Shown: one piece after another, positions 31,752-46,498 of the stretch
Layout: every line of letters starts with the position of its first letter
Position numbering within the stretch: the stretch's first letter is position 1
Assembly (NCBI GenBank): GCA_035294085.1
Contig: DATGLP010000012.1
Span: 1-50,949 of the forward strand
Reading direction: 5' to 3'
Source: Acidimicrobiales bacterium
GTDB lineage: Bacteria; Actinomycetota; Acidimicrobiia; Acidimicrobiales; Bog-793
Length of the DNA: 50,949 nucleotides
The notes under the pieces: generated by a model
What the model was told of the DNA's origin: nothing
The model's input: the letters and a program-made list of their open reading frames with translations, nothing else
Database searches by the model: none
Made by a program: the position numbers and the translations under genes

Positions 31752-32966
31752 GTGCTCTTTGTCGGAGTGGACTGGGCCGAGGACCACCACGAGTGCTGCG
31801 TGCTCGCCGAGGACGGAGCGGTGCTCGCCAAGCGCCGGGTCGCCGACAGCGTGGTCGGGATCTCGGAGCTCCACGAGCTCGTCGCCGAGCACGCTGCAGA
31901 CGAGGAGGAGATCGTGGTCGGCATCGAGACCGACCGCGGCCTGCTCGTGAACGCGCTGGTCGCTGCCGGCTATCAGCTCTATGCGATCAACCCGATGGCG
32001 GCTGCCCGCTATCGCGAGCGTCACGCCGTCTCGGGCGCGAAGTCCGACGCCGGCGATGCGAAGATGCTCGCCGACCTGGTCAGGACGGACCGCCACAACC
32101 ACCGCCCGATCGCCGGGGACTCCGAGCTCGCCGAGGCCGTGAAGCTGCTGGCGCGGGCGCACCAGTCGGCGATCTGGGGCCGCCAGCGTCAGGTGAACGC
32201 GCTCCGCAGCGCGCTGCGCGAGTACTACCCCGGTGCACTCGTCGCCTTCGGCACCGACCTGTCGAGCCGAGACGCGCTGGCGGTGCTCGAGATCGCTCCG
32301 ACCCCCGAGCTCGGACGCCAGCTGTCGCGCTCGAAGATCGCCGCAGCACTGCGCAGAGGCGGCAGGACGCGCAACCTCGAGCGTCGCGCCGCAGCGATCC
32401 AAGCGGCGCTGCGGGCCGAGCACCTCGAAGCTCCGGCGACGCTCACCATGGCCTCTGGCACGATCGCCCGCTCGGCCGTCGCCCTCATCAAGGCGTTCAA
32501 CGCTGAGATCGACGCCCTCGAGCACGCGCTGTCAGAGCATTTTGACAAGCACCCGGACGCCAAGGTCGTCCGCTCCCAGCCAGGACTCGGGACGGTCCTC
32601 GGCGCCCGGGTGCTCGGCGAGTTCGGTGATGACCGGACTCGGTTCGCCAGCGCCAAGTCTCGCAAGAACTACGCCGCCACGTCGCCGATCACCAAGGCGT
32701 CTGGCCGCAGCTTCGTCGTCCTCGCGCGCCATGCGAAGAACCGACGCCTTGCCAGCGCGTGCGACCAGTGGGCGTTCTGCGCCCTCACCCACTCGCCCGG
32801 AGCCCGCGCCTACTACGACAAGCTCCGCAGACGCGGCAAGGGCCATCGCCAAGCGCTCCGCCAGCTCGGCAATCGCCTCGTCGGCATCTTGCACCACTGC
32901 CTCGAGCACGGTGAGCTCTACGACGAGAGCCGTGCGTGGCCACCCTCCATCGCGGCGGCCGCTTGA
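31752..32966 (+). CDS. IS110-family transposase (bridge-RNA-guided recombinase)
   Basis: The 404-aa protein has an N-terminal RuvC-like DEDD domain with Asp7 (GVDWAED), Glu59 (VGIETDRG), Asp99 and Asp102 (KSDAGDAKMLADL), a central coiled region, and a C-terminal Tnp20 domain with SQPGLGTVLGARVLGEFGD and ATSPITKASGRS, where the catalytic serine of this family is expected. The GTG start has a strong ribosome-binding site (GAGGAGG, 4 bases away). The frame is intact and the length normal, so the enzyme is probably functional. The stop TGA overlaps a possible -35 hexamer for the circular form. Confidence 0.93.
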   Translation: MLFVGVDWAEDHHECCVLAEDGAVLAKRRVADSVVGISELHELVAEHAADEEEIVVGIETDRGLLVNALVAAGYQLYAINPMAAARYRERHAVSGAKSDAGDAKMLADLVRTDRHNHRPIAGDSELAEAVKLLARAHQSAIWGRQRQVNALRSALREYYPGALVAFGTDLSSRDALAVLEIAPTPELGRQLSRSKIAAALRRGGRTRNLERRAAAIQAALRAEHLEAPATLTMASGTIARSAVALIKAFNAEIDALEHALSEHFDKHPDAKVVRSQPGLGTVLGARVLGEFGDDRTRFASAKSRKNYAATSPITKASGRSFVVLARHAKNRRLASACDQWAFCALTHSPGARAYYDKLRRRGKGHRQALRQLGNRLVGILHHCLEHGELYDESRAWPPSIAAAA

Positions 32967-33368: not shown

Positions 33369-34682
33369 TTGACGGAAGTGACGCTTCGCCGGCGGTCCGG
33401 CTTCCCGCCCCTGCCATCGCCGCGGCCGGAGGGCGCGCCTGCGGCCTTTCATGTGATGGCCAAGCCCACAGGGGCAATCTGCAATCTCGACTGCAGCTAT
33501 TGCTTTTATCTCGAGAAGGAGGCGCTCTACCCCGGCGCACGCTTTCGCATGCAAGAAGACACCATGGAGGCGTACGTCCGCCAGGTACTCGAGTCCCAGA
33601 ATGGTCCGCGAGTGACGATTGCCTGGCAGGGCGGCGAGCCAACGCTGATGGGGCTTGCGTTCTTCCGCCGAATGGTCGAAACCGTCGAGCGTTACCGTCG
33701 CCCAGGGCAGCGGATTCAGCACACGTTGCAGACCAACGCTACCCTTCTCAACGAAGACTGGGCAATCTTCCTCGCCGAGCACGGATTCCTGGTCGGCGTC
33801 AGCATTGACGGTCCACCGGATCTACACGACCGCTTTCGGGTCGATAAGCGCGGCAAGCCGACTTCGAATCGTGTCCTCGCAGGCCTCTTGGCGCTTCGTC
33901 GCCACGACGTCGAATACAATGTACTCTGCACCGTGCATGCCGGCAATGTCGGTGAGCCACTGCGGGTCTATCGATACCTTCGCGATGAGTGCGGAGCGCT
34001 CGTCATCCAATTCATCCCGATCGTCGAGCACCGGCCGACGGCAGCAGACGGAAGCGCTGTGAGCGAGCGCAGCGTCTCGCCGATTGCCTGGGGGGACTTC
34101 CTGATTGCAGTCTTCGACGAGTGGGTCGGTCGTGACGTCGGCGACGTCTTCGTCCAGACATTCGATGCCATACTCGGACCTGTTCTCGGCTTACCGGCTG
34201 GGCTCTGCGTGTTTGCCGAGACCTGTGGCGCCGCCGTCGCCCTTGAGCACAACGGCGACGTCTATTCCTGTGACCACTTCGTCGACCCCAAGCACCGGCT
34301 TGGCAACCTGCACGAGACGCATCTTGTTGAACTCGTAGGCAGTGATCGTCAACGGCGCTTCGGCAGGGCTAAAAGCGACAGTCTGCCTCGGTACTGCAGG
34401 GAGTGCGAGGTTCTCTCCGCATGCTGGGGGGAGTGCCCGAAGAACCGGTTCGCGCTTTCTCCTGATGGAGAGGAGGGTCTCAACTACCTCTGTGCCGGCT
34501 ATAAGGCATTCTTTCGCCGCGTCGATGCTCCGTTGCGGACCATGGCCGACCTCATCCGCGCTGGCCGTCCCGCTTCCGATATCAAGAGGCAGATCGCTGA
34601 GGCAAAGCGCAACGATGACTGCCCGTGTGGCAGTAGGCGGAAGGCGAAGCATTGCCACCAACGCGCCTCTTCCTCGGCCTAG
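33369..34682 (+). CDS. Anaerobic-type sulfatase-maturating enzyme (radical SAM, anSME) with SEC-C tail
   Basis: anSMEs oxidise a Cys or Ser of sulfatases to the catalytic formylglycine. The 437-aa protein has FHVMAKPTGAICNLDCSYCFYLEKE with the radical SAM cysteines at 38, 42 and 45, the WQGGEPTLMGLAFF motif, LQTNATLL, GVSIDGP, and a SPASM domain (GDVYSCDHFVDP, then CRECEVLSACWGECPKNRF) that binds auxiliary clusters. A SEC-C zinc motif (CPCGSRRKAKHCH, residues 418-430) is added at the C-terminus. The start is uncertain: TTG 33369 is used, GTG 33378 is possible. Three Cys-type sulfatases nearby are the likely substrates. Confidence 0.9.
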   Translation: MTEVTLRRRSGFPPLPSPRPEGAPAAFHVMAKPTGAICNLDCSYCFYLEKEALYPGARFRMQEDTMEAYVRQVLESQNGPRVTIAWQGGEPTLMGLAFFRRMVETVERYRRPGQRIQHTLQTNATLLNEDWAIFLAEHGFLVGVSIDGPPDLHDRFRVDKRGKPTSNRVLAGLLALRRHDVEYNVLCTVHAGNVGEPLRVYRYLRDECGALVIQFIPIVEHRPTAADGSAVSERSVSPIAWGDFLIAVFDEWVGRDVGDVFVQTFDAILGPVLGLPAGLCVFAETCGAAVALEHNGDVYSCDHFVDPKHRLGNLHETHLVELVGSDRQRRFGRAKSDSLPRYCRECEVLSACWGECPKNRFALSPDGEEGLNYLCAGYKAFFRRVDAPLRTMADLIRAGRPASDIKRQIAEAKRNDDCPCGSRRKAKHCHQRASSSA

Positions 34683-34900: not shown

Positions 34901-34955
34901 GTCCTGCTTCCCCCATCGTGGGGGCTCGGACTCGCGCAACGGGTGGAGCAGTTCA
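34901..34955 (-). repeat. IS3-family terminal fragment abutting the sugar kinase gene
   Basis: These 55 bases match 47283-47337 at 49 positions in the same orientation. On the minus strand the fragment begins TGAACTGCTCCACCC, an IS3-like terminus, followed by a CCCCCACGATGGGGG hairpin. The first three bases (TGA) act as the stop codon of the PfkB kinase, so an insertion probably cut the end of that gene. The rest of 34683-34900 shows no gene. Confidence 0.65.
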
Positions 34956-35891
34956 CGGGGATTCGGTCATGGGCAACGGGGGAATATTCGGGAGCGCGCC
35001 GGGATGTTCGGAGGTGAGCGAACCGGCGGCCACTGCGAAATTCAGCGCTTCGGCCATTGACGCATGAGCAGCGAGGCGGGCACTGAATGCACCTACGAAG
35101 GCGTCACCGGCACCGGTCGTGTCGACGACGAGCGTGGGCGGAGCAGGTACCTGCACGATTCCGCGGTCGGTCGCCGCTAGGGCGCCCTCGGCCCCACGAG
35201 TGATCACGACGATCGGTGGACCGAGGTCGCGCAACCGTTCGGCCACTCGGGCCGGATCGAGATCGCTGGTCGTGGGTTCACCGAGAAGTTGGAGCGCTTC
35301 GACGGCGTTGACGATCAAGACGTCGACGAGTTCGAGGAGCTCGGGGGCAAGCGGGATGTAGGGGGCGCAGTTAAGAACGCGGATGGTGTCGGGGCCAACG
35401 AGCTCTGCTGCTCGCTGAATCGCCGATAGTGGCACCTCGGTTTGCATGACGAGCAGCGTGGCGTCGATGAGGAGGGCAGCGGCCCGTTCGATGTCGCCCA
35501 CATCGAGACACTGATTGGCGCCAGGGGAGACGACGATCGCGTTCTCGCCGTCGGCGGCGACGAGCACGACAGCCGTTCCGGTTGCCTTGCCCTCTGTAGT
35601 CGCGACGAACGTCGTCCCGACGCCCTCGTTCTTGAGTTGGGCGATACGGGCAACGCCGGCGTCATCAGTGCCGACACGAGCGATGAGTTCCACCTGGGCC
35701 CCACTGCGCGCCGCGGCGACTGCCTGGTTCGCTCCCTTGCCTCCGGGATGAACGGACTGGCGCCCGCCGGTGACCGTCTCGCCCGGTGTCGGAAGGTGCG
35801 CGACCTCGACCACGTAGTCGACGTTGATCGAGCCCACGACAACGACGAGTCCTGACGTGGCTGGCGCGTCGTGACCTGCGGCTGGGTTCAA
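34953..35891 (-). CDS. PfkB-family sugar kinase (ribokinase-like)
   Basis: The 312-aa protein has ribokinase hallmarks: VVVVGSINVDYVVEVAHLPTPGE, HPGGKGANQAVAAARSG, NCAPYIPL, LIVNAVEALQLLGE and the catalytic DTTGAGDAFVGAF. It phosphorylates a sugar, most likely ribose; the nucleoside hydrolase of the same island would release ribose. The TTG start at 35891 overlaps the upstream sulfatase stop as TTGA. The C-terminus ends abruptly after GALPNIPPLPMTESP, about ten residues short of typical RbsK, where an IS3-like terminus supplies the stop codon. Probably still folded, since the missing part lies after the last conserved helix. Confidence 0.88.
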   Translation of the reverse strand: MNPAAGHDAPATSGLVVVVGSINVDYVVEVAHLPTPGETVTGGRQSVHPGGKGANQAVAAARSGAQVELIARVGTDDAGVARIAQLKNEGVGTTFVATTEGKATGTAVVLVAADGENAIVVSPGANQCLDVGDIERAAALLIDATLLVMQTEVPLSAIQRAAELVGPDTIRVLNCAPYIPLAPELLELVDVLIVNAVEALQLLGEPTTSDLDPARVAERLRDLGPPIVVITRGAEGALAATDRGIVQVPAPPTLVVDTTGAGDAFVGAFSARLAAHASMAEALNFAVAAGSLTSEHPGALPNIPPLPMTESP

Positions 35892-37474
35892 ACCGGTGCC
35901 TCGACCTGGGGCCATGGATCGCGCCGCGGCGGGAGCACGCGGTACAAGGTGGCGATGAGTTCCGCTCGAACTGTGGCCATCGCGGGGTCGTTCCAGCGAT
36001 TGTCCCACTCCCTCGGGTCCTCGCTTAGGTCGTAGAGTTCGCCCTCGGTGCCGCGATACGAGACCGTGCTCGCGTTGGCGATGGTGTATCCCGCCAGCCG
36101 GGGAGGATGGCCCGTCGGGATGCCGATTGTGCTCGGCTCGTAGACCGTGCAGGTGAACGGGTCAAGGCGGATCGTTCTCAAATGCATGCCGACGGCAGAG
36201 CTCGGGCTGTCATAGGTAATGATGATCGGACGTACGGCTGCGGTTGCCTCGGTGCAGGGCAGCGGCAGCCCCTCGATCCACGCCGGTGGCGCGGTGTCGC
36301 AAGCCGCTGCGATCGTCGCGGTCACGTCGATCAATGGCACTGACGTGGACACTACGGCCGGGGCGATACCCATTGCCGGAGCCGGTCGCCACAGCAACGG
36401 GACGCGCATCAAAGCGTCGCAATGGAAGCCGCCTTTGAAAAGCAAGCCGAACTCGCCCTGAAAGTCGCCGTGGTCTGCCGTCACGATGATGTCGGTATTC
36501 GCGCCCCAGCCGCGCCGTTCGAGTTCCTTGAGCACGGTACCGATTGCGTCGTCAATGAGCTCTACTTCGACGTCGATCGTAGCGGAGATCTCGCGCAGCT
36601 GATCTGCGGTGAGCTGGTTCGCCGCCCAGTCGCCACGACTGCACTCACCGGTGAATGTGCCTTCGAAGAAGCCGAGCCAGTGGTCGGGCTTTCGCGCCAG
36701 GATCTCCCTGCAGCGCGCAAGGTTTCCCGGGTAGTACTCGGGCAGCGGTCGCTCACGCCACGGGACACGGTGGCGTTCTTCGTCAGGCGGATCCCACGGA
36801 TGATGCGGGTCTGGGAAGCTCATCCATACGAACCACGGCTCACCGTCGGGTAGGCCCGCGAGGTACTCCACAGTCTGCTGCGCCACCCACGAGGTGTGAT
36901 AGAGCTCGGTCGGGACGGGATTGTTGACGAGATCGGGCGCGCCGGTGTCGCCTCCGAAGCCGTTGGTTGGATGGGCAGCGCGTCGGCGCAGGTTGAGGAA
37001 TCCTCCGACCCACTCGGGGTGCTCGCGCTGAAGGAAGCGACCGTAATGCCCGTCGAAGGGGCCGTGTCCGGCAAAGCTCACGGTGTCGAAGCCGCGATAC
37101 GGACCGTGCGCGTCCTCATGTGCGAGACGTTCCTCGTCGTAGCGCAGCTCGGGATCGTATGACGGTTCAAAGTGCCCCTTGCCGATCAGCGCAGTGTGGT
37201 AACCCGCAGCGTTGAGGTACGAAGCCACCGACGGCGCGTCGGTTGGAAGCGGCACCCCGACGGCCCAGGCGCCATGCGTATGAGGTAGCTGTCCCGTCAA
37301 CAAGCTCGATCGCGACGGGGTGCAGGTGACATTCGGTACGTACGCCCGCTCATAGCGCACGCCGCTTCGAGCGATGGAATCGAGGTTCGGCGTCCGAACG
37401 ACGGGATTACCGGTGCAGTGCAGGGCGTCATGCCGGAGCTGATCGGCCGTGATGAGCAGGACATTCCGCTTCAT
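35888..37474 (-). CDS. Formylglycine-type sulfatase (528 aa)
   Basis: This alkaline-phosphatase-superfamily sulfatase hydrolyses a sulfate ester. The formylglycine site is Cys51 in VTCTPSRSSLLTGQLPHTHG (C-T-P-S-R), metal-binding Asp11-Gln12 lie in LLITADQLRHDAL, and VTADHGDFQGEFGLLFKGGF provides the second metal Asp/His pair and a lysine. No signal peptide is seen, so it is probably cytosolic. It is joined to the next sulfatase upstream (37471-38892) by an ATGA overlap and to the kinase downstream by TTGA. Substrate unknown; the length and C-terminal DLSEDPREWDNRW suit a choline-sulfatase- or aryl-type enzyme. Confidence 0.9.
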   Translation of the reverse strand: MKRNVLLITADQLRHDALHCTGNPVVRTPNLDSIARSGVRYERAYVPNVTCTPSRSSLLTGQLPHTHGAWAVGVPLPTDAPSVASYLNAAGYHTALIGKGHFEPSYDPELRYDEERLAHEDAHGPYRGFDTVSFAGHGPFDGHYGRFLQREHPEWVGGFLNLRRRAAHPTNGFGGDTGAPDLVNNPVPTELYHTSWVAQQTVEYLAGLPDGEPWFVWMSFPDPHHPWDPPDEERHRVPWRERPLPEYYPGNLARCREILARKPDHWLGFFEGTFTGECSRGDWAANQLTADQLREISATIDVEVELIDDAIGTVLKELERRGWGANTDIIVTADHGDFQGEFGLLFKGGFHCDALMRVPLLWRPAPAMGIAPAVVSTSVPLIDVTATIAAACDTAPPAWIEGLPLPCTEATAAVRPIIITYDSPSSAVGMHLRTIRLDPFTCTVYEPSTIGIPTGHPPRLAGYTIANASTVSYRGTEGELYDLSEDPREWDNRWNDPAMATVRAELIATLYRVLPPRRDPWPQVEAPV

Positions 37475-38892
37475 GCTCGATCCTCGTCGGCAACGCCCTT
37501 CAAGAACCAGGGCTCGTCATACAGTGCGTACGGTCCATCGAAGCGCCACGCCTCGTCGCCGTTGTGTCGGGGTAACTCGCGGACGCGAAGGCCTGAGTGC
37601 GCAGGGTCCTCGTAGCGCTCGAAGTACTCGGCGATAGCGGACGCGAGGTGATCGCGAATCCGATCAAGCATCGGATCGTTGATGCGGTTCGTCGTCTCGC
37701 GTGGATCGACCATGAGGTCGAATAGTTCGTCGGCACCATGCCCCGCCCGCAGGATCAGCTTGTGGTTGCGGCTTCGTGCCATACGCAGATCTCCGTACTC
37801 GCCGAACGCGATATCTGGCCAGTCTGGGATTGGCTTGCCGACGAGCAAGTCGACGAAGGAGCGGCCGGGGAGGTCGACATCGGTGGGCGCTGGTAAGGCC
37901 GCGAACTCTGCCAGGGTCAGGTGGAGATCGCAGTGGCCGACGAATTCGGAACGCACCTGACCGCCGAGGATCTGACCCGGAGCATTGACGATCATCGGGA
38001 TGCGGATTGACTCTTCGAGCATGTTATAGGGATGAGTCGCGTTTCCCTTTCCCCACAACCCGTGGTGGCTAGCATTGAGGCCGTGGTCGCTGGTATAGAC
38101 GACGAGAGTGTGCTCTCGGAGCCCCTGGTCGTCGAGTTCGTCGAGGACGCGCCCGAGCTGCTCGTCAATCTCCGACACCGCTGCGTAGTACTGGGCGAGC
38201 GCCTCGCGCGGGTGCTCCCGGGTTCGATAGAGCGACTCGGAAGTAGGGCGACCGAAAGGATGAGTGACGTCGGCGGGGATGTCGTCAAACGAGCAGGAGC
38301 GGTACTGCTCGACAAGTCGTTCCGGGTGCCCGCTCCACGGGCTGTGGGTCGCGAAGTGGCCGATGAAGAGGAAGAACGGCTGCTCAGGGGGCCTACGGCG
38401 GAGGAACTCGATGGCATGATCGGTGATGGCGTGGCGTTCGAAGTACTTCGGAGGCGCTGCGCTCGGCCACGGGGAGTACATTCCCTCGGGTTCGAGTGGA
38501 GCGGACTGTGCGAACCAGTAGTCGAATCCGGGAGCGGGTCTCGACGCGTCACCGAGGTGCCACTTGCCGCTGAAGCCGGTTGCGTATCCGGCAGCGTGCA
38601 GTGAGACCGCCAAGGTGCGGTGCCCGGCAATTCCCGGGTGCTCGCCGCTCTTCACCACCGGATCGGCGAGGTAATCGTGCACGCCGTGCTGGGAGGGGAT
38701 CTTCCCTGTCCAGAACGAGGCGCGCGCCGGCGAGCACACCGGGGTGGCACAGAAGGCGTTGTCGAATCGAACCCCGGTGCGCGCGAGATAGTCGAGGGTT
38801 GGCGTACGGATCTCTCGATTGCCCGAGCATCCGAGCGCCCACTGCGCGTGGTCGTCAGTCATGACGACGACGATGTTCGGCCTCGATGCCAT
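37471..38892 (-). CDS. Formylglycine-type sulfatase (473 aa)
   Basis: The second sulfatase of the minus-strand operon. Metal-binding Asp13-Asp14 occur in VVVMTDDHAQWALG, the formylglycine cysteine is Cys53 in TPVCSPARASFWTGKIPSQHG (C-S-P-A-R), GKWHLG is present, and YTSDHGLNASHHGLWGKGN carries the second metal and substrate residues. There is no signal peptide. The ATG at 38892 has a GAGGAGGGCGG ribosome-binding site. It is the first gene of the sulfatase-sulfatase-kinase operon and is transcribed divergently from the GntR gene, with the shared control region 38893-39001. Confidence 0.92.
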   Translation of the reverse strand: MASRPNIVVVMTDDHAQWALGCSGNREIRTPTLDYLARTGVRFDNAFCATPVCSPARASFWTGKIPSQHGVHDYLADPVVKSGEHPGIAGHRTLAVSLHAAGYATGFSGKWHLGDASRPAPGFDYWFAQSAPLEPEGMYSPWPSAAPPKYFERHAITDHAIEFLRRRPPEQPFFLFIGHFATHSPWSGHPERLVEQYRSCSFDDIPADVTHPFGRPTSESLYRTREHPREALAQYYAAVSEIDEQLGRVLDELDDQGLREHTLVVYTSDHGLNASHHGLWGKGNATHPYNMLEESIRIPMIVNAPGQILGGQVRSEFVGHCDLHLTLAEFAALPAPTDVDLPGRSFVDLLVGKPIPDWPDIAFGEYGDLRMARSRNHKLILRAGHGADELFDLMVDPRETTNRINDPMLDRIRDHLASAIAEYFERYEDPAHSGLRVRELPRHNGDEAWRFDGPYALYDEPWFLKGVADEDRA

Positions 38893-38961
38893 CCGCCCTC
38901 CTCGCTGTAGGTCCAGCGAACCTTGACTCGCGCTCTCGCCAGGTGCTCTACTACCTACCCT

Positions 38962-38984
38962 AGACGTCCGAAGTCCAGACGTCC
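38962..38984. promoter_or_regulatory. Candidate GntR/HutC operator
   Basis: In the 109-bp gap between the divergent sulfatase and gntR genes the octamer AGACGTCC occurs twice (38962-38969 and 38977-38984), 15 bp apart. Between them lies GTCCAGAC (38973-38980), close to the GTCTAGAC-type site bound by HutC-class GntR regulators. A TTGACT (38923-38928) spaced 18 bp from TCTACT could be the gntR promoter, which puts the repeats just downstream of the -10, a repressing position. Confidence 0.45.
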
Positions 38985-39001
38985 AACCTCTTAGGGGAGA
39001 G

Positions 39002-39775
39002 ATGCGGGAGAGAAGCCGGCTGGCAGTCGACGTGGCCGCCGAGTTGCGCGCGCTCATCGCTCGCAACTCGAGTCCCGGTGAGCGGATCCCGGCGGAGAGC
39101 GAGCTCGCCGAACAGCTCGGCGTGAGCCGCAATACGCTGCGCGAGGCCCTCTGGCTGCTGTGGAGTGAGGGGCTGCTCGTGCGGCGCTGGGGAGTCGGTA
39201 CGTTCGTGCGCGATCGGACGCCTCCGTCGCCGTCGCAGCTGCTGGAGTTCGTACCGGTTCGGGACATGATCCGTGGGTCGGGCCGCGAACCCACGCTCAC
39301 CGTCGCAGTGGTCGAGCGTCGCCCCTGCGTTCGGGAGGCCGCGGTTGCGCTGGGCCTCCGGGAAGGCGAGGAGGCGTGGTGGCTCGACCGCACTTTCGCC
39401 GCCGACGGGGTGCCAGCGGTCACCCTGCAGGACTGGGTGCCCAGTCGCGTCAACGGTCGGGAGCTCGACCTCACCCCGTTGAAGGATGTCGACCAAGGGC
39501 TGCTGGGCCTGCTGTACGACGCGGCTCGGTGTCGAGTGGTGCGAATGGAAGCACATCTCACCGCGGAATTAGCGAGTGATGAAATGGCCGAGCGCATGCG
39601 TCAGCGCCAGCCGTTCCCGGTGATGGTTGGTGTCCAAGTGTCCTACGACGACACGGACCGGCCAGTCATCTTCTCACGCAACTACTACGCGACCGGAGTC
39701 TTCGATGTCCGAGTGTTGCGTACGGTCCATCGCTGGCAGCGCCCGTCGGTCAGTGGGGCTGGGACACCCCTATGA
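39002..39775 (+). CDS. GntR-family regulator, HutC subfamily
   Basis: The 257-aa protein has an N-terminal winged helix (residues about 5-75, with GERIPAESELAEQLGVSRNTLREAL) and a C-terminal UTRA ligand-binding domain (VRDMIRGSGREPT, LGLREGEEAWWLDRTFAADGVP, and a PVIFSRNYYATGVFDV end). It is the likely local regulator, sensing a catabolite and binding the repeats upstream of its own gene. It overlaps the following sulfatase gene as ATGA, so regulator, sulfatase and transporter are made from one message. Confidence 0.92.
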   Translation: MRERSRLAVDVAAELRALIARNSSPGERIPAESELAEQLGVSRNTLREALWLLWSEGLLVRRWGVGTFVRDRTPPSPSQLLEFVPVRDMIRGSGREPTLTVAVVERRPCVREAAVALGLREGEEAWWLDRTFAADGVPAVTLQDWVPSRVNGRELDLTPLKDVDQGLLGLLYDAARCRVVRMEAHLTAELASDEMAERMRQRQPFPVMVGVQVSYDDTDRPVIFSRNYYATGVFDVRVLRTVHRWQRPSVSGAGTPL

Positions 39776-42003
39776 ACGACCAACCGACTTTTGGCGGCGT
39801 TGTGGGCACGACGGTGGACCGGTCGACACCGTATTGGCCGGAGCCACAACGCCGCAACGGCGCACCGAATGTCGTGATCGTCGTCTTCGACGATACGGGC
39901 TGGGCCGATTTCGGATGCTTCGGCTCAGAGATCGCAACGCCCACCGTCGATCGCCTGGCGGCTAGTGGCACGAAGCTCACGAACTTTCACGTGACGCCGC
40001 TGTGCTCGCCGACGCGAGCCTGTCTGCTGACGGGCCGGAACCATCACAGCGTCGGAATGCGCTTCCTGGCGGTGGCCGACACCGGCTTCCCAAACGCTCG
40101 GGCACGACTCCCGCTCGGGGTTCCGACGCTTCCTGGGGTGCTGCGTGAGCGCGGGTATGGCACGTATCTCTCGGGCAAGTGGCACCTCGCGCCCCAGGAG
40201 GAGCTCACGCCGGCGGGACCCTTCGGGAATTGGCCGCTGGCACGCGGATTTGACCGCTTCTACGGCTTCCTGAGCGGTGCAAGCGACCAGTTCGCGCCCG
40301 AGCTGATCAGCGACAATTCTCCCGCGGTGCACCCAGGTGGAGACGACTACCACCTGAGCGCTGATCTCGTTGACCACGCCATCGGCTTTCTCAGCGACCA
40401 CGTGGCCTTTCGGCCGAACAACCCGTTCTTCCTCCAACTTGCCTTCGGCGCGACGCACGCGCCGTTCCAGGCGCCGCGGCAGTATCGTGAGCGCTACCGG
40501 GGCACCTTCGACGCGGGCTGGGAGGCCACTCGGGCCGCGCGCTTAGAGCGCCAAATAGCGCTCGGCGTGGTTCCGCCGGGTACCGAGCTGACCGAGCACG
40601 ACGCCGAGGTGCCCCGCTGGGCGGCGCTGAGCGAGGAGGAGCGCCGCCGCTCGGTGGCGTGTCAGGAGGCTTACGCCGGATACCTCGAGCACGCCGACGC
40701 AGAGCTCGGCAGGCTTGTGGACTGGCTGGAGCAGCAAGACCTGCTGGGGGAGACCATCGTCATCGTCTTCTCCGACAACGGCGCTGCCGGGGACGGTGGC
40801 AGAACAGGCGCCGCGAGTGTGATCGCGCTCTATAACAATCTCGGTCACGACCCGACCGCAAGCGCCATCCCGATCGCCGAGATCGGCTCTCGTACTGGAC
40901 CGGCACACTACGCCACAGGCTGGGCGATGGCCTCCAACACGCCATTTCGGCTCTACAAGCAGTACGTGGATCTTGGCGGGGTGCGTTCGCCGTGCATTGT
41001 GCGCTGGCCGGGCGTGACCGAGTCTCAGGCGGTCAGCCGAGCTTTTGCGCACGTGATCGACATCGCGCCGACGATCCTTGAGGCTGCGGGTTGCATGGAC
41101 AGCGACGCCGGCCGCGCGATGCATGGTCGCTCACTTCGTTCGGCGCTGTGCGGCGCGCCGCCGAGGGAGACACGGACGCAGTACTTCGAGATGCTCGGTC
41201 ACCGTGCAATCTGGCACGACGGATGGAAGGCGGTTGCTCGTCATCGGCCGGGATCGCCCTTTGAACAGGACCGCTGGCGCCTCTATGACACACGCGTCGA
41301 CTTCGCAGAGTGTCACGATCTGGCGGAGCGGGAACCGGAGCTTCTGGCGTCGCTACAACGGCGTTGGCACGAGGAGGCGTTGCGCTTCGACGTCTATCCT
41401 CTTGATGACCGTCCGCTCAGACAGATGCTGATGATGCGGGATCCCCGCCGAGCGCGGTGGCGCCGCTGCTGGCGATTTTTGCCGACCCAGAGCCACCTCT
41501 CGTTCACGAGCGGGATCTGCGGCAGCGCGCGACCCGTGCGGATCACGCTGCGCCTTGCCGACCGTCGCCCGGGCGACGATGGTGTTCTGCTCGCAAGCGG
41601 TACGTGTTATGGCGGTTACGTGCTCTACGTGCTCGACGAGGAATTGGTCTTCGAGCACGTGCTCATCGGCGAGCGCGTTACCTGCCAGGCGGCTGGCAAG
41701 CTGCCACTTGGCGAGGTGGACATCGCGATGGAGTTCCGCCCCGCCGAACCCCCCGGGGGTTCGGTCATTCTTGAGGTCTCCGGCCAACAGGTCGCCGCTC
41801 AGTACCTACCCGCCGTAGCGCGCCAACCTGCCTTCTACGGCATGGACATCGGTTGTGACCGCGCGTCGCAGATCTCAGCCGCGTACGCCGGTCGCGGCGA
41901 GTTCGCCTACCGGAGAGACGGAATCGTTGACGTCACGTTGGAATTCCTTGACGTCGATCGCGACGCCGCTGAGGTCACCGAGCAGCTGGAGCGGACCCAA
42001 TGA
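39772..42003 (+). CDS. Arylsulfatase-type formylglycine sulfatase (743 aa)
   Basis: A large AtsA-like sulfatase. Metal-binding Asp40-Asp41 lie in VVFDDTGWADFGCFG, the formylglycine cysteine is Cys78 in TPLCSPTRACLLTGRNHHSVG (C-S-P-T-R), YLSGKWHL and HAPFQAP follow, and VFSDNGAAGDGG has the Asp-Asn metal pair. Beyond about residue 570 a C-terminal region of about 170 residues rich in beta structure (FLPTQSHLSFTSG onward) resembles the extra domain of long actinobacterial arylsulfatases. No signal peptide. It overlaps gntR and the ATPase gene as ATGA at both ends. Confidence 0.92.
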   Translation: MNDQPTFGGVVGTTVDRSTPYWPEPQRRNGAPNVVIVVFDDTGWADFGCFGSEIATPTVDRLAASGTKLTNFHVTPLCSPTRACLLTGRNHHSVGMRFLAVADTGFPNARARLPLGVPTLPGVLRERGYGTYLSGKWHLAPQEELTPAGPFGNWPLARGFDRFYGFLSGASDQFAPELISDNSPAVHPGGDDYHLSADLVDHAIGFLSDHVAFRPNNPFFLQLAFGATHAPFQAPRQYRERYRGTFDAGWEATRAARLERQIALGVVPPGTELTEHDAEVPRWAALSEEERRRSVACQEAYAGYLEHADAELGRLVDWLEQQDLLGETIVIVFSDNGAAGDGGRTGAASVIALYNNLGHDPTASAIPIAEIGSRTGPAHYATGWAMASNTPFRLYKQYVDLGGVRSPCIVRWPGVTESQAVSRAFAHVIDIAPTILEAAGCMDSDAGRAMHGRSLRSALCGAPPRETRTQYFEMLGHRAIWHDGWKAVARHRPGSPFEQDRWRLYDTRVDFAECHDLAEREPELLASLQRRWHEEALRFDVYPLDDRPLRQMLMMRDPRRARWRRCWRFLPTQSHLSFTSGICGSARPVRITLRLADRRPGDDGVLLASGTCYGGYVLYVLDEELVFEHVLIGERVTCQAAGKLPLGEVDIAMEFRPAEPPGGSVILEVSGQQVAAQYLPAVARQPAFYGMDIGCDRASQISAAYAGRGEFAYRRDGIVDVTLEFLDVDRDAAEVTEQLERTQ

Positions 42004-42860
42004 GCGACAGCGGTCTGCGAGTCGACGTATGGGAGAAGGGCGTGACCAGTCACGCGCAGACCGCCTTGAATCCACCAGGATCCCGCGGCGGCCACATCGT
42101 GCTGCGCGGAGTTGACAAGGAGTTCTCCATCCGCCGCCGTCAGCGGTTCGTCGCGCTGCATGACATTGATCTCGAGATTCCCGCTGGCTCCTTCGTGTCG
42201 TTGATCGGGCCTTCGGGGTGCGGGAAATCTACATTGCTTCGCATTCTCGTCGGGCTCGAGGCGCCGACGAGGGGGTCGGTGCTCATCGACGGTGCTGCAC
42301 CGCGCGAGCTGGTGCAAGGGCACCGTGTCGGCTTCGCCTTCCAGGAGCACGCGTTGCTGCCGTGGGCGAACGTCGTAGAGAACATCGCCCTTCCCTTCCA
42401 TCTCGCCAAGCGCCCGATCGATCAGCACCGTGTCGCCGATCTCGTCGCAATGATCGGACTCAACGGCTTCGAGGGATCTCGTCCCAAGCAGTTGTCGGGA
42501 GGCATGCGTCAACGGGTCGCGCTTGCCCGGGCCCTCGCCCTTGCCCCAGACGTGCTCTTGCTGGACGAACCGTTCGGCGCACTTGACGCGATTACGAGGC
42601 GGCACCTCAACGTCGAGCTCGGTCGCATATGGGATGAAACTCGCGTCACCACGGTTCTCGTCACCCATGCGGTAGATGAGGCGGTGCTTCTGAGCAATGA
42701 GGTCGTCGTCATGAGTCGCGGTCCAGGTCGGATCCTGCGCCGGGTGCCGATCTCGCTCGATCGGCCACGCACGCGAGACATGATTGCGTCTCCGGTCTTC
42801 CAGAGGCTCCAGGTCGAACTCGAGGAAGCGCTCGACGAAGCGGAGTCAGCCGCGCGATGA
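42000..42860 (+). CDS. ABC transporter ATPase (nitrate/sulfonate/taurine type)
   Basis: The 286-aa ATP-binding subunit has Walker A GPSGCGKST (residues 70-78), the Q-loop in GFAFQEHALLPWANV, signature LSGGMRQRVALARAL (165-179), Walker B LLLDEPFGALD and the switch His in VLVTHAVDEA. The LPW-x-N-V segment is typical of the SsuB/TauB/NrtD/ThiZ group. An N-terminal stretch of about 30 residues precedes the domain. It is coupled by ATGA overlaps to the sulfatase upstream and the permease downstream. Confidence 0.95.
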   Translation: MSDSGLRVDVWEKGVTSHAQTALNPPGSRGGHIVLRGVDKEFSIRRRQRFVALHDIDLEIPAGSFVSLIGPSGCGKSTLLRILVGLEAPTRGSVLIDGAAPRELVQGHRVGFAFQEHALLPWANVVENIALPFHLAKRPIDQHRVADLVAMIGLNGFEGSRPKQLSGGMRQRVALARALALAPDVLLLDEPFGALDAITRRHLNVELGRIWDETRVTTVLVTHAVDEAVLLSNEVVVMSRGPGRILRRVPISLDRPRTRDMIASPVFQRLQVELEEALDEAESAAR

Positions 42861-43606
42861 GCACGCGTGTCTCGATGGCGCTGCAGTACGCCCTCGGAAC
42901 CGCGCTTCTGCTCGGGCTCTGGCAGATGCTTGGCGCGACCGCAGCGTTCGGCCAGACGCTTCCGTCGCTCTCCTCGGTGCTCGCCACGATCGGGAGTGCG
43001 ACCGAGCGACCGATATTGGCCCCCGCTGTGGGGGCGACTGCGCTCTCCGCGCTGGCTGGGCTCGCGATCGGGGGTGGCTGTGCCGTGGTTGCGGCAGCAT
43101 TGCGCTACAGCCTCCAATTCGCTCGAGAAGGAATCGATCGGAGCGCGGCGACGGTGCACTCGATCCCGGGGATCGGTATCGCGCCGGTGCTGACCCTGGC
43201 GCTCGGACGCGCGACGACCCCGATTGCTCTTGCCGCGCTCGCCACCTTCTTTCCTGTCTACATCACTGCATCGGCAGCGCTTGGCGCTGCGCAGAGCACC
43301 CACCAGGATCTCTTTAGCGTCCTCGGCGCCAGCAGGCTGCAACGTCTACGGCGCCTGCAGATCCCTGCCGCAGTCCCAGGGTTGCTCGACGCCCTTCGAC
43401 TCGGCGCGCCGGGCGCGGTGCTTGGAGCCGTCCTCGGCGAGTGGTTCGGCGCACCGCGCGGCCTTGGCCTCGTGATCATCAGCTCGGCCCAGAACTACCA
43501 GATCGTGCAGATGTGGGCGGCATCATTGTTAACCACGCTGCTCTCAGTATTGGCGTTCGCAGTTGCCTCGGCACTGCAATTCGCCACCAGGCGGCGGTTC
43601 CGTTGA
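42857..43606 (+). CDS. ABC transporter permease 1
   Basis: A 249-aa integral membrane subunit of the SsuC/TauC/ThiX type, with about six helices (for example LGTALLLGLWQML, VGATALSALAGLAIGGG, ALAALATFFPVYITAS). The EAA-like coupling loop is LFSVLGASRLQRLRRLQIPAAVPGLLDALRLG. It overlaps the ATPase gene by ATGA and the second permease gene by TTGA. Two different permeases in one operon suggest a heterodimeric channel, whereas SsuC-type systems usually use one. Confidence 0.93.
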   Translation: MSTRVSMALQYALGTALLLGLWQMLGATAAFGQTLPSLSSVLATIGSATERPILAPAVGATALSALAGLAIGGGCAVVAAALRYSLQFAREGIDRSAATVHSIPGIGIAPVLTLALGRATTPIALAALATFFPVYITASAALGAAQSTHQDLFSVLGASRLQRLRRLQIPAAVPGLLDALRLGAPGAVLGAVLGEWFGAPRGLGLVIISSAQNYQIVQMWAASLLTTLLSVLAFAVASALQFATRRRFR

Positions 43607-44358
43607 ATCTGGGATCGCTCGCTCTGGGCGTTCTGCGACGGTGGTGGGTGGTCGCTCTGGTCGTCGTGCTCTGGGAGGTCGTCGTGGTGGCCGGACGCGT
43701 GAACTCGGTCATCGTGCCCGGGCCGGCTCCGGTGGTTGGGGAGTTCTTCTCTCAGCCGATCTTCTACCTCGCGCCGCTCGGCGACACCCTCGCGACCGCT
43801 GCCGTGGGCCTCGTCTGTGGCGTGTGCGCCGGATACGCGATGGCGGCGTGCGGTTGGTACTTGCCGCTGCTCGGCGGGCTCCTCACGCCGCTCGCGCTGG
43901 TGCTCCGCTCGATGCCATTCGTCACGTTGGTGCCGGTACTGGCGTTGGTGCTGGGCTACGGCACGACGAGTGCCCTCGTGATCTGCTCAGTAGTCTGCTT
44001 CTTCCCGACCTACGTGCTCGTCTCGACGGGAATGCGAACGCTTCCAGGTGGTGCCGAAGCGCTCTTCGAGGTCGCGGGAGCGAGCAGGCGCGTGGCTTTC
44101 CGGCGGCTTGTGATACCGGCATCGCTCCCGTCGCTCGCAACGTCGATCCGCATCTCGGCGGCAACGTCGATCCTCGCGGCCCTCGTCGCCGAATACCTAA
44201 TGGGTACGCCCGGGCTGGCGTCGCTTCTGTATGTCGCGCTGGATGATTTGCTCGTGATCAAAGTCTGGACAATCTGTCTGGTAGTTGTAGTCGTGGCGAT
44301 TGCCGTCTTCGTAGCCACTACTCGCCTTGAGGAGTTCGTACGTACGCGTTGGCAGTAG
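43603..44358 (+). CDS. ABC transporter permease 2, TTG start
   Basis: A 251-aa permease of the same family as the preceding gene but clearly diverged. Helices include VVALVVVLWEVVVVAGRV, TAAVGLVCGVCAGYAMA and ALVICSVVCFFPTYVLVS, and the coupling loop is LFEVAGASRRVAFRRLVIPASLPSLATSIRI. The only suitable start is TTG at 43603, which overlaps the preceding stop as TTGA. Confidence 0.92.
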   Translation: MNLGSLALGVLRRWWVVALVVVLWEVVVVAGRVNSVIVPGPAPVVGEFFSQPIFYLAPLGDTLATAAVGLVCGVCAGYAMAACGWYLPLLGGLLTPLALVLRSMPFVTLVPVLALVLGYGTTSALVICSVVCFFPTYVLVSTGMRTLPGGAEALFEVAGASRRVAFRRLVIPASLPSLATSIRISAATSILAALVAEYLMGTPGLASLLYVALDDLLVIKVWTICLVVVVVAIAVFVATTRLEEFVRTRWQ

Positions 44359-44409
44359 GCGCCGCGACTGAACCGAATCATAGGTATCAAGTACTGGGGG
44401 AATGCGACC

Positions 44410-45516
44410 ATGAGTGAGATCCATCAGCGCACGTTTTCGCGGCGGTCATTTCTTGGGGGAATCGCAGTCATCGGCGGCGCGGGCCTCTTGACGAGGGCTG
44501 GGCACGGCCTTCGCCCACAAGGAGGGGAACACCGGATCGCGAGAAAGGCGGTCCCAATGACGATTGCCTTCAGCTTCCTACCCAACGTAGAGTACGCCGG
44601 TTGGATCCTTGCACAGCAGAACGGCTGGTACCGCGATTACGATCTCGATATCACCTTGGTTGGCGGCGGCCCGAACGCGCCAACGCCCGAGGCGCAGCTG
44701 ACAGCTGGGACGGCGCAGGTTGCAACCGAGGCAAATACCGTCCGCCTGTTCTCGGCGCTCGCTCAGGGTCAACCCCTCGTCATCTTCGCCCAGGACTACC
44801 AGCAGTCGCCGAACGGCCTACTGTCCCTGAGGCGTCGGCCAGTGACCACTCCGGCCGAGCTCGAGGGCGCACGGATCATCGCCTCCGCGCCGAACGCTCC
44901 GAGCATCGCCGCGCTGATGAAGATCAACCATGTGAAGAACTACACCTTTGTTCCGGGCGGTATCACCGTGGATGGGCTGCTCGCCGGCCAAGGCGATGCG
45001 CTGCTCGCCTTCGCGTATAACCAACCGCTCACCCTCGAGCTCCATTACGGGATGCGGGAAGGAAAAGACTTCTTCTTTACGCCGTTCAGTAAGCTCAATT
45101 ATGACATCCTGTCCGATGTCAGCATCACGACGCGCTCGTACCGCGACCACCACCGTGAAGCCCTCGTCAAGCTGGTCGCCGCCAATATCCGCGGGTGGAC
45201 CGAGGACATCAAGTTCCCACTGAACGGGACGAACGCCACAATGCGGGAGTTCGGCGCCAGCCAGGGCTTGAACCGCGCTCAGCAGGAGAAGGCAAACAAG
45301 ATCCAGGCCTCCTATGTGGTCTCGCGCTGGTCGCAGGCGCATGGGCTGCTGTCGCTCAACCCCGGCTACATCCAGGACAGCGTCTACCGTACGCTGCGAG
45401 CCTCGGGTATCACCAACCTGCCCGCACTCGAGCACGTGATCGACACGTCGATCGTGGCCGACGCATGGAAGCTCGTAGGGAAGGCGAACCGAGGCGTACG
45501 TGGACGCGGACGATGA
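44410..45516 (+). CDS. ABC transporter substrate-binding protein (NMT1/Thi5-like, Tat signal)
   Basis: The 368-aa binding protein has a twin-arginine signal (FSRRSFLGG, residues 9-17, then a hydrophobic stretch IAVIGGAGLL), so it is exported folded. The mature part has the NMT1/Thi5-like fold signs: FLPNVEYAGWILAQQNGWYRDYDLDITLVGGGPNAP, LTAGTAQVATE and PNGLLSLRRRPVTTPAELEGARI. This family binds sulfonates, pyrimidines, nitrate and related small molecules. It lies 51 bp after the second permease gene and overlaps the nucleoside hydrolase gene by 17 bases. The ligand is not predictable. Confidence 0.92.
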   Translation: MSEIHQRTFSRRSFLGGIAVIGGAGLLTRAGHGLRPQGGEHRIARKAVPMTIAFSFLPNVEYAGWILAQQNGWYRDYDLDITLVGGGPNAPTPEAQLTAGTAQVATEANTVRLFSALAQGQPLVIFAQDYQQSPNGLLSLRRRPVTTPAELEGARIIASAPNAPSIAALMKINHVKNYTFVPGGITVDGLLAGQGDALLAFAYNQPLTLELHYGMREGKDFFFTPFSKLNYDILSDVSITTRSYRDHHREALVKLVAANIRGWTEDIKFPLNGTNATMREFGASQGLNRAQQEKANKIQASYVVSRWSQAHGLLSLNPGYIQDSVYRTLRASGITNLPALEHVIDTSIVADAWKLVGKANRGVRGRGR

Positions 45517-46498
45517 TGCCAAGCGCACGATGATCGACGTCGTTCTGGACGTCGATACCGGTGTTGACGACGCACTGGCGCTTCTCTTGGCATGCCGCCA
45601 CCCGCTCGTAGCGCTCAAAGCCGTGACTTGCGTTGCCGGAAACGCGGCGATCGACCAGGTGGTGGCCAATACGCGAGCAGTGCTCGCAACGGCGGGGCGA
45701 CTCGAGATCCCCCTCGGCAGAGGGGCAGCGGGCCCGCTTATCGGTAATCACCGCAACGCCTCGCACTTCCATGGTAGCGACGGCCTCGGTGATCTCGGCC
45801 TGTCGGTGGCATCGGCGGCCGACGCGACCGCCCCAGCAGTCGAATTGCTGCGCAGGACGATCCTGATGGCCGAACGACCGCTCTCACTCGTTTGTCTTGG
45901 TCCGATGACCAACCTGGCGCTGCTCGTACGGCAGCATCCGGACATTGCCGCGCGTTGCGAGCGCATCATCTGCATGGCAGGCTCGCTCGGACGCGGCATG
46001 GCTACTCCAGTTGCCGAGTTCAACGTGTGGCACGATCCGGAAGCAGCGGCGATCTGCCTGTCAGCCGGCCTGCCGATCACGATGTATGGCCTGGAGGTCT
46101 TCATGGAGGTCACTGTTACCTCTGAGACGGTTGCCGATCTTCTTGAAGACCCATCACCCTCGGCGGTACTTGCCGGTCGGCTCTTGGGTTACCTCGCCGA
46201 TGCAAGCCATCGGCTCGGCGACATGGCGTCCGGCGATGACATCTGTATCGGCGATGCCGGGGCACTCTGCGCACTCATCGAGCCAGCCGGGCTGACGACC
46301 GGGCGTTATCCGGTCGAGGTCGAGCTTGCTGGCACCTGGACGCGCGGCCAGACCGTCGTAGACCGGCGACGACGCATTGGCGAAGGAGAGCTGCACGGGG
46401 GCGCGCCGCGGCACCGCAACCTTGTCGATGTGGCCGTCGCAGTCGATGCAAAGCGATATAGTGCGCTCTTTTTGGACGCGCTTCGGTCGACGAATTGA
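45500..46498 (+). CDS. Inosine-uridine-type nucleoside hydrolase
   Basis: The family splits N-ribosides into base and ribose. The 332-aa protein has the calcium-binding aspartate cluster VVLDVDTGVDDALALLLA (residues 14-31), HFHGSDGLGDLG, a LVCLGPMTNLAL segment, and FNVWHDPEAA (conserved N-x-x-x-DPEAA). GTG 45500 is chosen because GAGG lies 5 bases upstream; ATG 45530 is possible. Being last in the transporter operon, it points to a ribosylated compound as the imported substrate, with the PfkB kinase taking the sugar. Confidence 0.9.
   Translation: MDADDDAKRTMIDVVLDVDTGVDDALALLLACRHPLVALKAVTCVAGNAAIDQVVANTRAVLATAGRLEIPLGRGAAGPLIGNHRNASHFHGSDGLGDLGLSVASAADATAPAVELLRRTILMAERPLSLVCLGPMTNLALLVRQHPDIAARCERIICMAGSLGRGMATPVAEFNVWHDPEAAAICLSAGLPITMYGLEVFMEVTVTSETVADLLEDPSPSAVLAGRLLGYLADASHRLGDMASGDDICIGDAGALCALIEPAGLTTGRYPVEVELAGTWTRGQTVVDRRRRIGEGELHGGAPRHRNLVDVAVAVDAKRYSALFLDALRSTN

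What the first reader, a model, noticed from the sequence alone, without database searches (positions are those of the whole stretch)
33369..34682. anSME with an added SEC-C zinc motif
The maturase ends in CPCGSRRKAKHCH, the zinc-binding SEC-C motif better known from SecA, where it contacts ribosomes and SecB. Formylglycine formation must act on unfolded sulfatase chains, so a motif that recruits the enzyme to ribosomes or nascent chains would be logical. Oxygen-tolerant actinobacteria commonly use the unrelated copper enzyme FGE, so a radical SAM maturase with Cys-type sulfatases is also notable.
Basis: partly seen in the sequence, partly recalled or inferred. Interest (0 to 1): 0.55.

Follow-up and report, generated by a model that had tools for sequence, protein, structure and literature searches.

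The report
Sulfatase activator with SecA-like tail
The gene makes a radical enzyme that switches on sulfatases and ends in a small metal-binding tail like the one on the protein-export motor SecA; the tail turns out to be common on this enzyme in many bacteria and some archaea, so the gene itself is ordinary, but what the tail does is untested and worth testing.

Summary
The ORF at 33369-34682 (+) is a full anaerobic sulfatase maturase (TIGR03942, 464 bits; cut-off 349) ending in a SEC-C motif (PF02810, 27.2 bits; cut-off 20.4). The tail is not a local oddity. The genome's second anSME has it too, and it is carried by 15 of 28 anSMEs from the same phylum, 16 of 29 from Planctomycetes, 17 of 26 from a methanogen phylum, but 1 of 29 from Pseudomonadota. 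Among 90 non-redundant tails the metal ligands are invariant and Asn-3, Lys+7 and Lys+9 are kept in 87 each, while the linker varies freely. The tail was gained or lost many times (31 changes on the tree, 19 forced by well-supported branches). The genome has no FGE and no SecB. In 12 archaeal genomes with tailed anSMEs, 14 of 15 SEC-C motifs lie on the anSME, so SecA/SecB docking cannot be the general role. Docking at the ribosome or nascent chain remains the best guess, by analogy with the SecA tail, but is undemonstrated. A link between the tail and cytosolic substrates vanished once phylogeny was considered. Verdict: a real, ordinary member of a widespread architecture, with an open, easily tested functional question.

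The parts
33369..34682 (+). anaerobic sulfatase maturase (anSME) ORF with C-terminal SEC-C tail, TTG start, stop included
   Evidence: TIGR03942 464 bits; closest solved relatives 4k36-4k39 anSMEcpe by sequence and fold
33480..33503 (+). radical SAM motif CNLDCSYC (C38, C42, C45)
   Evidence: invariant in the 40-row alignment; aligned with anSMEcpe
34206..34493 (+). SPASM region with eight conserved Cys (C280, C286, C301, C343, C346, C352, C356, C375) and Asp302 after C301
   Evidence: invariant; aligned Cys for Cys with 4k36
34554..34607 (+). short linker between core and SEC-C, mostly helix in the model (H402-411)
   Evidence: in the wider set linkers are variable in length and poorly conserved
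34608..34664 (+). SEC-C motif RNDDCPCGSRRKAKHCHQR (CXCX8CH)
   Evidence: PF02810 over gathering score; SecA tail structures 1ozb, 1tm6, 1sx0 are the nearest solved sequences; pLDDT block mean 92 for aa 411-420 and 88 for aa 421-430
35888..37474 (-). sulfatase, Cys-type motif CTPSR, no signal peptide seen (likely substrate)
   Evidence: PF00884; N-terminus and motif
37471..38889 (-). sulfatase, Cys-type motif CSPAR, no signal peptide if it starts at MASRPN (likely substrate)
   Evidence: PF00884; N-terminus and motif
39772..42003 (+). sulfatase, Cys-type motif CSPTR, no signal peptide seen (likely substrate)
   Evidence: PF00884

Best explanation
The protein is an ordinary three-cluster anSME: the radical SAM cluster makes a 5'-deoxyadenosyl radical that oxidises the Cys of the CxPxR motif of the neighbouring cytosolic sulfatases to formylglycine (inferred from family membership). 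Its SEC-C tail is a repeatedly gained and lost accessory module, shared with about half of the family members surveyed. Most likely the folded metal knuckle with its conserved lysines docks the enzyme on the large ribosomal subunit or on nascent chains, so that the sulfatase motif is oxidised before it folds. Shown here: the architecture, its conservation, its distribution and the absence of SecB and FGE. Inferred: the docking and its partner.
For: Full anSME signature. The motif is under stronger constraint than the enzyme: at 46% mean core identity tail motifs stay 71% identical while the linker is 10%. N-3, K+7 and K+9 are each kept in 87 of 90 tails and in 17 of 17 archaeal tails. Jamshad et al. 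2019 proposed that such conserved positive residues contact the ribosome; their isolated SecA tail domain co-sedimented with ribosomes and its tail construct crosslinked near uL23 (passages). In 12 archaeal genomes SEC-C occurs almost only on anSME (14 of 15), so the partner cannot in general be SecA or SecB, and the ribosome is a partner present everywhere.
Against: No binding data of any kind. About half of the surveyed family does without the tail, including close sister sequences (L070 with, L074 without; L081 with, L071 without), so it is dispensable. The prediction that tails go with cytosolic substrates fails: 43 of 47 tailed against 29 of 42 untailed loci have cytosolic neighbours (Fisher p 0.013) but independent pairs on the tree show nothing. 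In SecA itself removal of the tail domain alone raised, not lowered, ribosome affinity. The window copy has two departures from consensus (G+5 to R, G+13 to Q).
Confidence: 0.4

Rival explanations
1. The tail is a metal (iron or zinc) site that serves the enzyme itself: holding iron for cluster repair, sensing metal or oxygen, or stabilising the C-terminus.
For: All 90 non-redundant tails keep the CXCX8C(H/C) spacing; SecA-like tails are reported to hold iron in vivo (stated in passages); the knuckle and the preceding helix are confidently predicted in this protein.
Against: Non-ligand residues (Asn-3, Lys+7, Lys+9) are almost as conserved as the ligands, which a bare metal site does not obviously need; linkers of 23 to 97 residues argue against a fixed place next to the clusters.
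Confidence: 0.2
2. The tail binds the unfolded sulfatase chain or helps anSME self-association or solubility, with no role for the ribosome.
For: Tailed loci have only Cys-type sulfatases in the neighbour set (64 of 64 motifs; Ser-type 10 of 45 in untailed loci), which could mean substrate-linked use.
Against: The Ser-type cases come from Pseudomonadota-type loci, which hardly have tails, so the link is confounded by phylogeny; the tail sequence hardly differs from that of SecA, a protein with other clients.
Confidence: 0.17
3. The tail docks anSME on SecB or mimics SecA at the export machinery.
For: Near identity to the SecA tail, whose structure 1ozb is the top match (that 1ozb is the complex with SecB is stated).
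Against: No SecB in this genome; the window's sulfatases show no signal peptide; tailed anSMEs are common in methanogens (17 of 26), and archaea lack SecA (textbook knowledge, not tested).
Confidence: 0.05
4. The tail is a mobile hitchhiker with little function, acquired by domain shuffling and lost freely.
For: At least 31 changes on the tree; garbled or degenerate tails in L017 and L114 and a frame-shifted one in L044.
Against: Strong sequence constraint in kept tails; clustering on the tree well above shuffled labels (31 against 60 changes).
Confidence: 0.1

Closest known systems
anSMEcpe (Clostridium perfringens; 4k36-4k39)
   Same: radical SAM plus SPASM fold, CX3CX2C motif, eight auxiliary-cluster Cys and the Asp after C301 all align
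   Different: the alignment ends before the tail; the solved chains give no SEC-C match
SecA C-terminal metal-binding domain (1ozb, 1tm6, 1sx0)
   Same: CXCX8CH, RN before the first Cys, Lys at +7 and +9, extreme C-terminus after a linker
   Different: on a radical SAM enzyme rather than the ATPase; no SecB in the host; window copy departs at +5 and +13
Other SEC-C-tailed TIGR03942 proteins (this survey)
   Same: identical domain order; found in Actinomycetota, Chloroflexota, Planctomycetes, Acidobacteria, Desulfobacteraceae and methanogens among others
   Different: linker length: 23-25 residues in ten near relatives of the window, median 34 (range 24-97) in the other 80
YecA and YchJ (E. coli SEC-C proteins)
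   Same: SecA-like tail domain (PMC8076867 passages; YchJ chain 9l6b)
   Different: not described as radical SAM enzymes; [quoted passage not shown]

Membership tests
anaerobic sulfatase maturase (anSME, TIGR03942) | score over the curated equivalog cut-off | tested here: met
   464.3 against 349.45 bits
anaerobic sulfatase maturase (anSME, TIGR03942) | radical SAM CX3CX2C and the auxiliary-cluster Cys set with the following Asp | tested here: met
   (functional roles of the residues recalled, not from a call)
anaerobic sulfatase maturase (anSME, TIGR03942) | sulfatases with C/S-x-P-x-R motif as substrates in the genome | tested here: met
   seven PF00884 matches in the genome, three beside the gene; Cys-type motifs
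anaerobic sulfatase maturase (anSME, TIGR03942) | oxidation of Cys or Ser to formylglycine | not testable with these tools
   needs an assay
SEC-C / SecA-like metal-binding domain (PF02810) | CXCX8C(H/C) and score over gathering cut-off | tested here: met
   27.2 against 20.4 bits
SEC-C / SecA-like metal-binding domain (PF02810) | metal binding | not testable with these tools
   all ligand residues present; no measurement
SEC-C / SecA-like metal-binding domain (PF02810) | ribosome binding as shown for the E. coli SecA tail | not testable with these tools
   only residue conservation
SecA-SecB type partnership of the SEC-C tail | a SecB in the genome | tested here: not met
   no PF02556 match in G000
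FGE (SUMF1-type, PF03781) maturation system | an FGE-sulfatase family protein in the genome | tested here: not met
   0 matches in G000

The most novel reading that the evidence does not exclude
The SEC-C knuckle is a portable ribosome-docking tag that exists independently of SecA: fused to anSME it turns formylglycine formation into a co-translational step, and it does so even in archaea that have no SecA and almost no other SEC-C protein.
Probability: 0.3. Interest if true: 0.6.

Novelty: new member of a known kind. Interest (0 to 1): 0.3.

Why it matters
When and where formylglycine is made on a sulfatase chain in prokaryotes is poorly defined (recalled). A small, separable tail present on about half of the surveyed maturases and absent from the rest, sometimes between close relatives, is a ready-made handle for testing whether maturation is co-translational. 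The archaeal tails give a way to study a SecA-like tail domain without SecA or SecB. It could also matter for formylglycine tags in protein engineering, where incomplete conversion is a known problem (recalled).

Tried and rejected
Tail tied to secreted or cytosolic substrates: neighbour sulfatases were classed by a hydrophobic-segment rule. Raw counts (89 loci) favoured cytosolic substrates for tailed enzymes, but the phylogenetically independent pairs gave no signal. Seven loci that the rule called cytosolic (L090, L091, L093, L094, L282, L297, L342) were changed by eye to signal-bearing before that count, because a signal sequence is plain in the printed N-termini; the other 10 signal-bearing rows were the rule's own. 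Loci without a usable sulfatase N-terminus or motif, with an open-ended anSME, with a short core or with an identical core were dropped before the count.

SecB or Sec-machinery docking was considered and put aside.

Sampling limits: the scan returned the best 80 of 166 relatives, chosen by two core peptides near the window's sequence, so its 43 of 80 is biased to near relatives. The phylum samples used E <= 1e-80, and 3 matches each came without a locus and were not examined. The 20 genomes overlap. The 12 archaeal genomes were chosen because their anSME is tailed. The tree is a FastTree with long branches flagged; the direction of changes (gain or loss) is not inferred. Bacteroidota were not sampled as a phylum.

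Literature: no paper in the held library has SEC-C together with sulfatase and radical SAM (0 papers); the 28 papers hold either 'anaerobic sulfatase maturating' or 'SEC-C motif', none both; none of the 15 listed of 92 has SEC-C; (methionine aminopeptidase with SEC-C) and one search gave 0. This says nothing about subscription journals or domain databases, where the architecture may be listed.

Full report
What is there. The ORF at 33369-34682 on the + strand encodes 437 residues from a TTG start. It scores 464.3 bits to TIGR03942, anaerobic sulfatase maturase, well over the curated 349.45, and shows Radical_SAM, SPASM and SEC-C in Pfam, SEC-C at residues 414-432 with 27.2 bits against a cut-off of 20.4. 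The radical SAM Cys triad (C38, C42, C45), the eight auxiliary-cluster Cys and the Asp after C301 are invariant in a 40-row alignment and line up with anSMEcpe, 4k36. The predicted fold (mean pLDDT 89.3) has anSMEcpe chains as its eight top hits (TM-score by target 0.83-0.89). The tail motif is nearest to the SecA tail structures 1ozb, 1tm6 and 1sx0. The model gives the tail high confidence (block means 94, 92 and 88 for residues 401-430), with a helix (402-411) leading into the knuckle; no domain-domain error was available, so I make no claim on its placement.

The genome. The assembly G000 (2.42 Mb in 31 contigs, 95.7% complete) holds two anSMEs over cut-off. The second lies directly after a sulfatase gene and also ends in SEC-C; the two proteins are 66% identical. 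PF03781 (FGE) has no match and PF02556 (SecB) has none. SEC-C has four matches over cut-off: SecA on contig C26 (tail [23 protein letters not shown]), the two anSMEs, and a small protein with the motif near its N-terminus. Seven sulfatase matches exist, three of them beside the anSME. The window's sulfatases carry Cys-type motifs and no signal peptide that I could see. A haem-copper oxidase subunit I is present, so the organism probably respires oxygen, yet it has only the oxygen-independent maturase.

How common is the tail. I took each anSME to its stop codon and asked for CxC, 6 to 9 residues, C(H/C) after the core. Result: window genome 2 of 2; scan, 43 of 80; same phylum 15 of 28; Planctomycetes 16 of 29; Pseudomonadota 1 of 29; the methanogen phylum 17 of 26. 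The 27 anSME loci of the 20 genomes, which overlap the scan, gave 13. In L044 an intact SEC-C lies in another frame just downstream; L017 and L114 have garbled or incomplete tails. After removing near copies there were 179 cores, 90 with a tail, and the tail needs 31 changes on a FastTree, 19 of them forced by well-supported branches, against a shuffled mean of 60. So it is clustered but often gained or lost. In the window's own clade (10 rows) nine have it.

Is it kept by selection. In the 90 tails the spacing is always CXCX8C(H/C); Asn-3, Lys+7 and Lys+9 are kept in 87 each, Gly+3 in 86, Ser+4 in 85. For pairs of enzymes with 40-50% core identity (568 pairs) the 18-residue motif is on average 71% identical and the linker 10%; the same order holds in every identity class. 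Pairs are not independent, so this is a description, not a test. The window's copy is among the less typical: 13 of 18 consensus positions, with Arg for Gly at +5 and Gln for Gly at +13; the paralogue matches 15.

What could it do. In E. coli the isolated SecA tail domain co-sediments with ribosomes, modification of the metal-binding Cys disrupts this for the tail construct, crosslinks of the tail construct react with uL23 antibody, and many species keep the domain without SecB (Jamshad et al. 2019, PMC6620043, abstract and passages). The same paper reports that disrupting that domain alone raises SecA's ribosome affinity, so its role there is regulatory as much as tethering. A review notes that other SEC-C proteins may be accessory Sec components (PMC8076867, passages). 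For anSME, Sec-specific partners are ruled out as a general role: this genome has no SecB, its window sulfatases look cytosolic, and the tail is common in methanogens. In 12 archaeal genomes with tailed anSMEs, 14 of 15 SEC-C matches sit on the anSME itself, by coordinates; the fifteenth (G1241) is an unrelated protein with the motif near its N-terminus. The lysines and Asn-3 are kept in 17 of 17 archaeal tails. A partner that all these cells share is the ribosome. That is the argument for docking; it is an inference, and a metal site that serves the enzyme itself or a substrate-binding role fits almost as well.

A test that failed. If the tail helps to catch cytosolic sulfatases before they fold, tailed enzymes should sit next to cytosolic sulfatases. 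In 89 loci the counts are 43 cytosolic and 4 signal-bearing for tailed, 29 and 13 for untailed (Fisher p 0.013), but among phylogenetically independent pairs substrate type almost never differs (9 pairs, about one informative). Seven signal calls were made by eye (see Tried and rejected). I treat this as no evidence. Most Planctomycete loci had no recognised neighbour sulfatase, so that group says little either way.

Conclusion. The functional question is open, and I found nothing on it in the held library.

Noticed in passing
window 34953-46498: A PfkB (ribokinase-like) sugar kinase, three sulfatases, a GntR/UTRA regulator, an ABC transporter (ATPase, two permeases, NMT1/THI5-like binding protein) and an inosine-uridine-type nucleoside hydrolase lie together: perhaps uptake and breakdown of a sulfated nucleoside or riboside.
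   Followed up: partly
window 31752-32966: An IS110-family transposase gene lies just upstream of the anSME.
   Followed up: no
L044, just after the anSME core: A methanogen anSME has an intact SEC-C coding stretch in another frame just after the core: a frameshift or an assembly error.
   Followed up: partly
L179 (G400, an enterobacterium) and L211: G400 has five anSME matches, of which one (L179) has a SEC-C tail; L211 is the only tailed one among the 29 Pseudomonadota loci.
   Followed up: no
L006:1459-2028: A 190-aa protein of the same genome has SEC-C near its N-terminus and no Pfam match at E 0.001.
   Followed up: no
L002:2774-3844: An unscanned ORF, by eye of the enolase superfamily type, follows the second anSME, which itself follows a sulfatase gene.
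   Followed up: no
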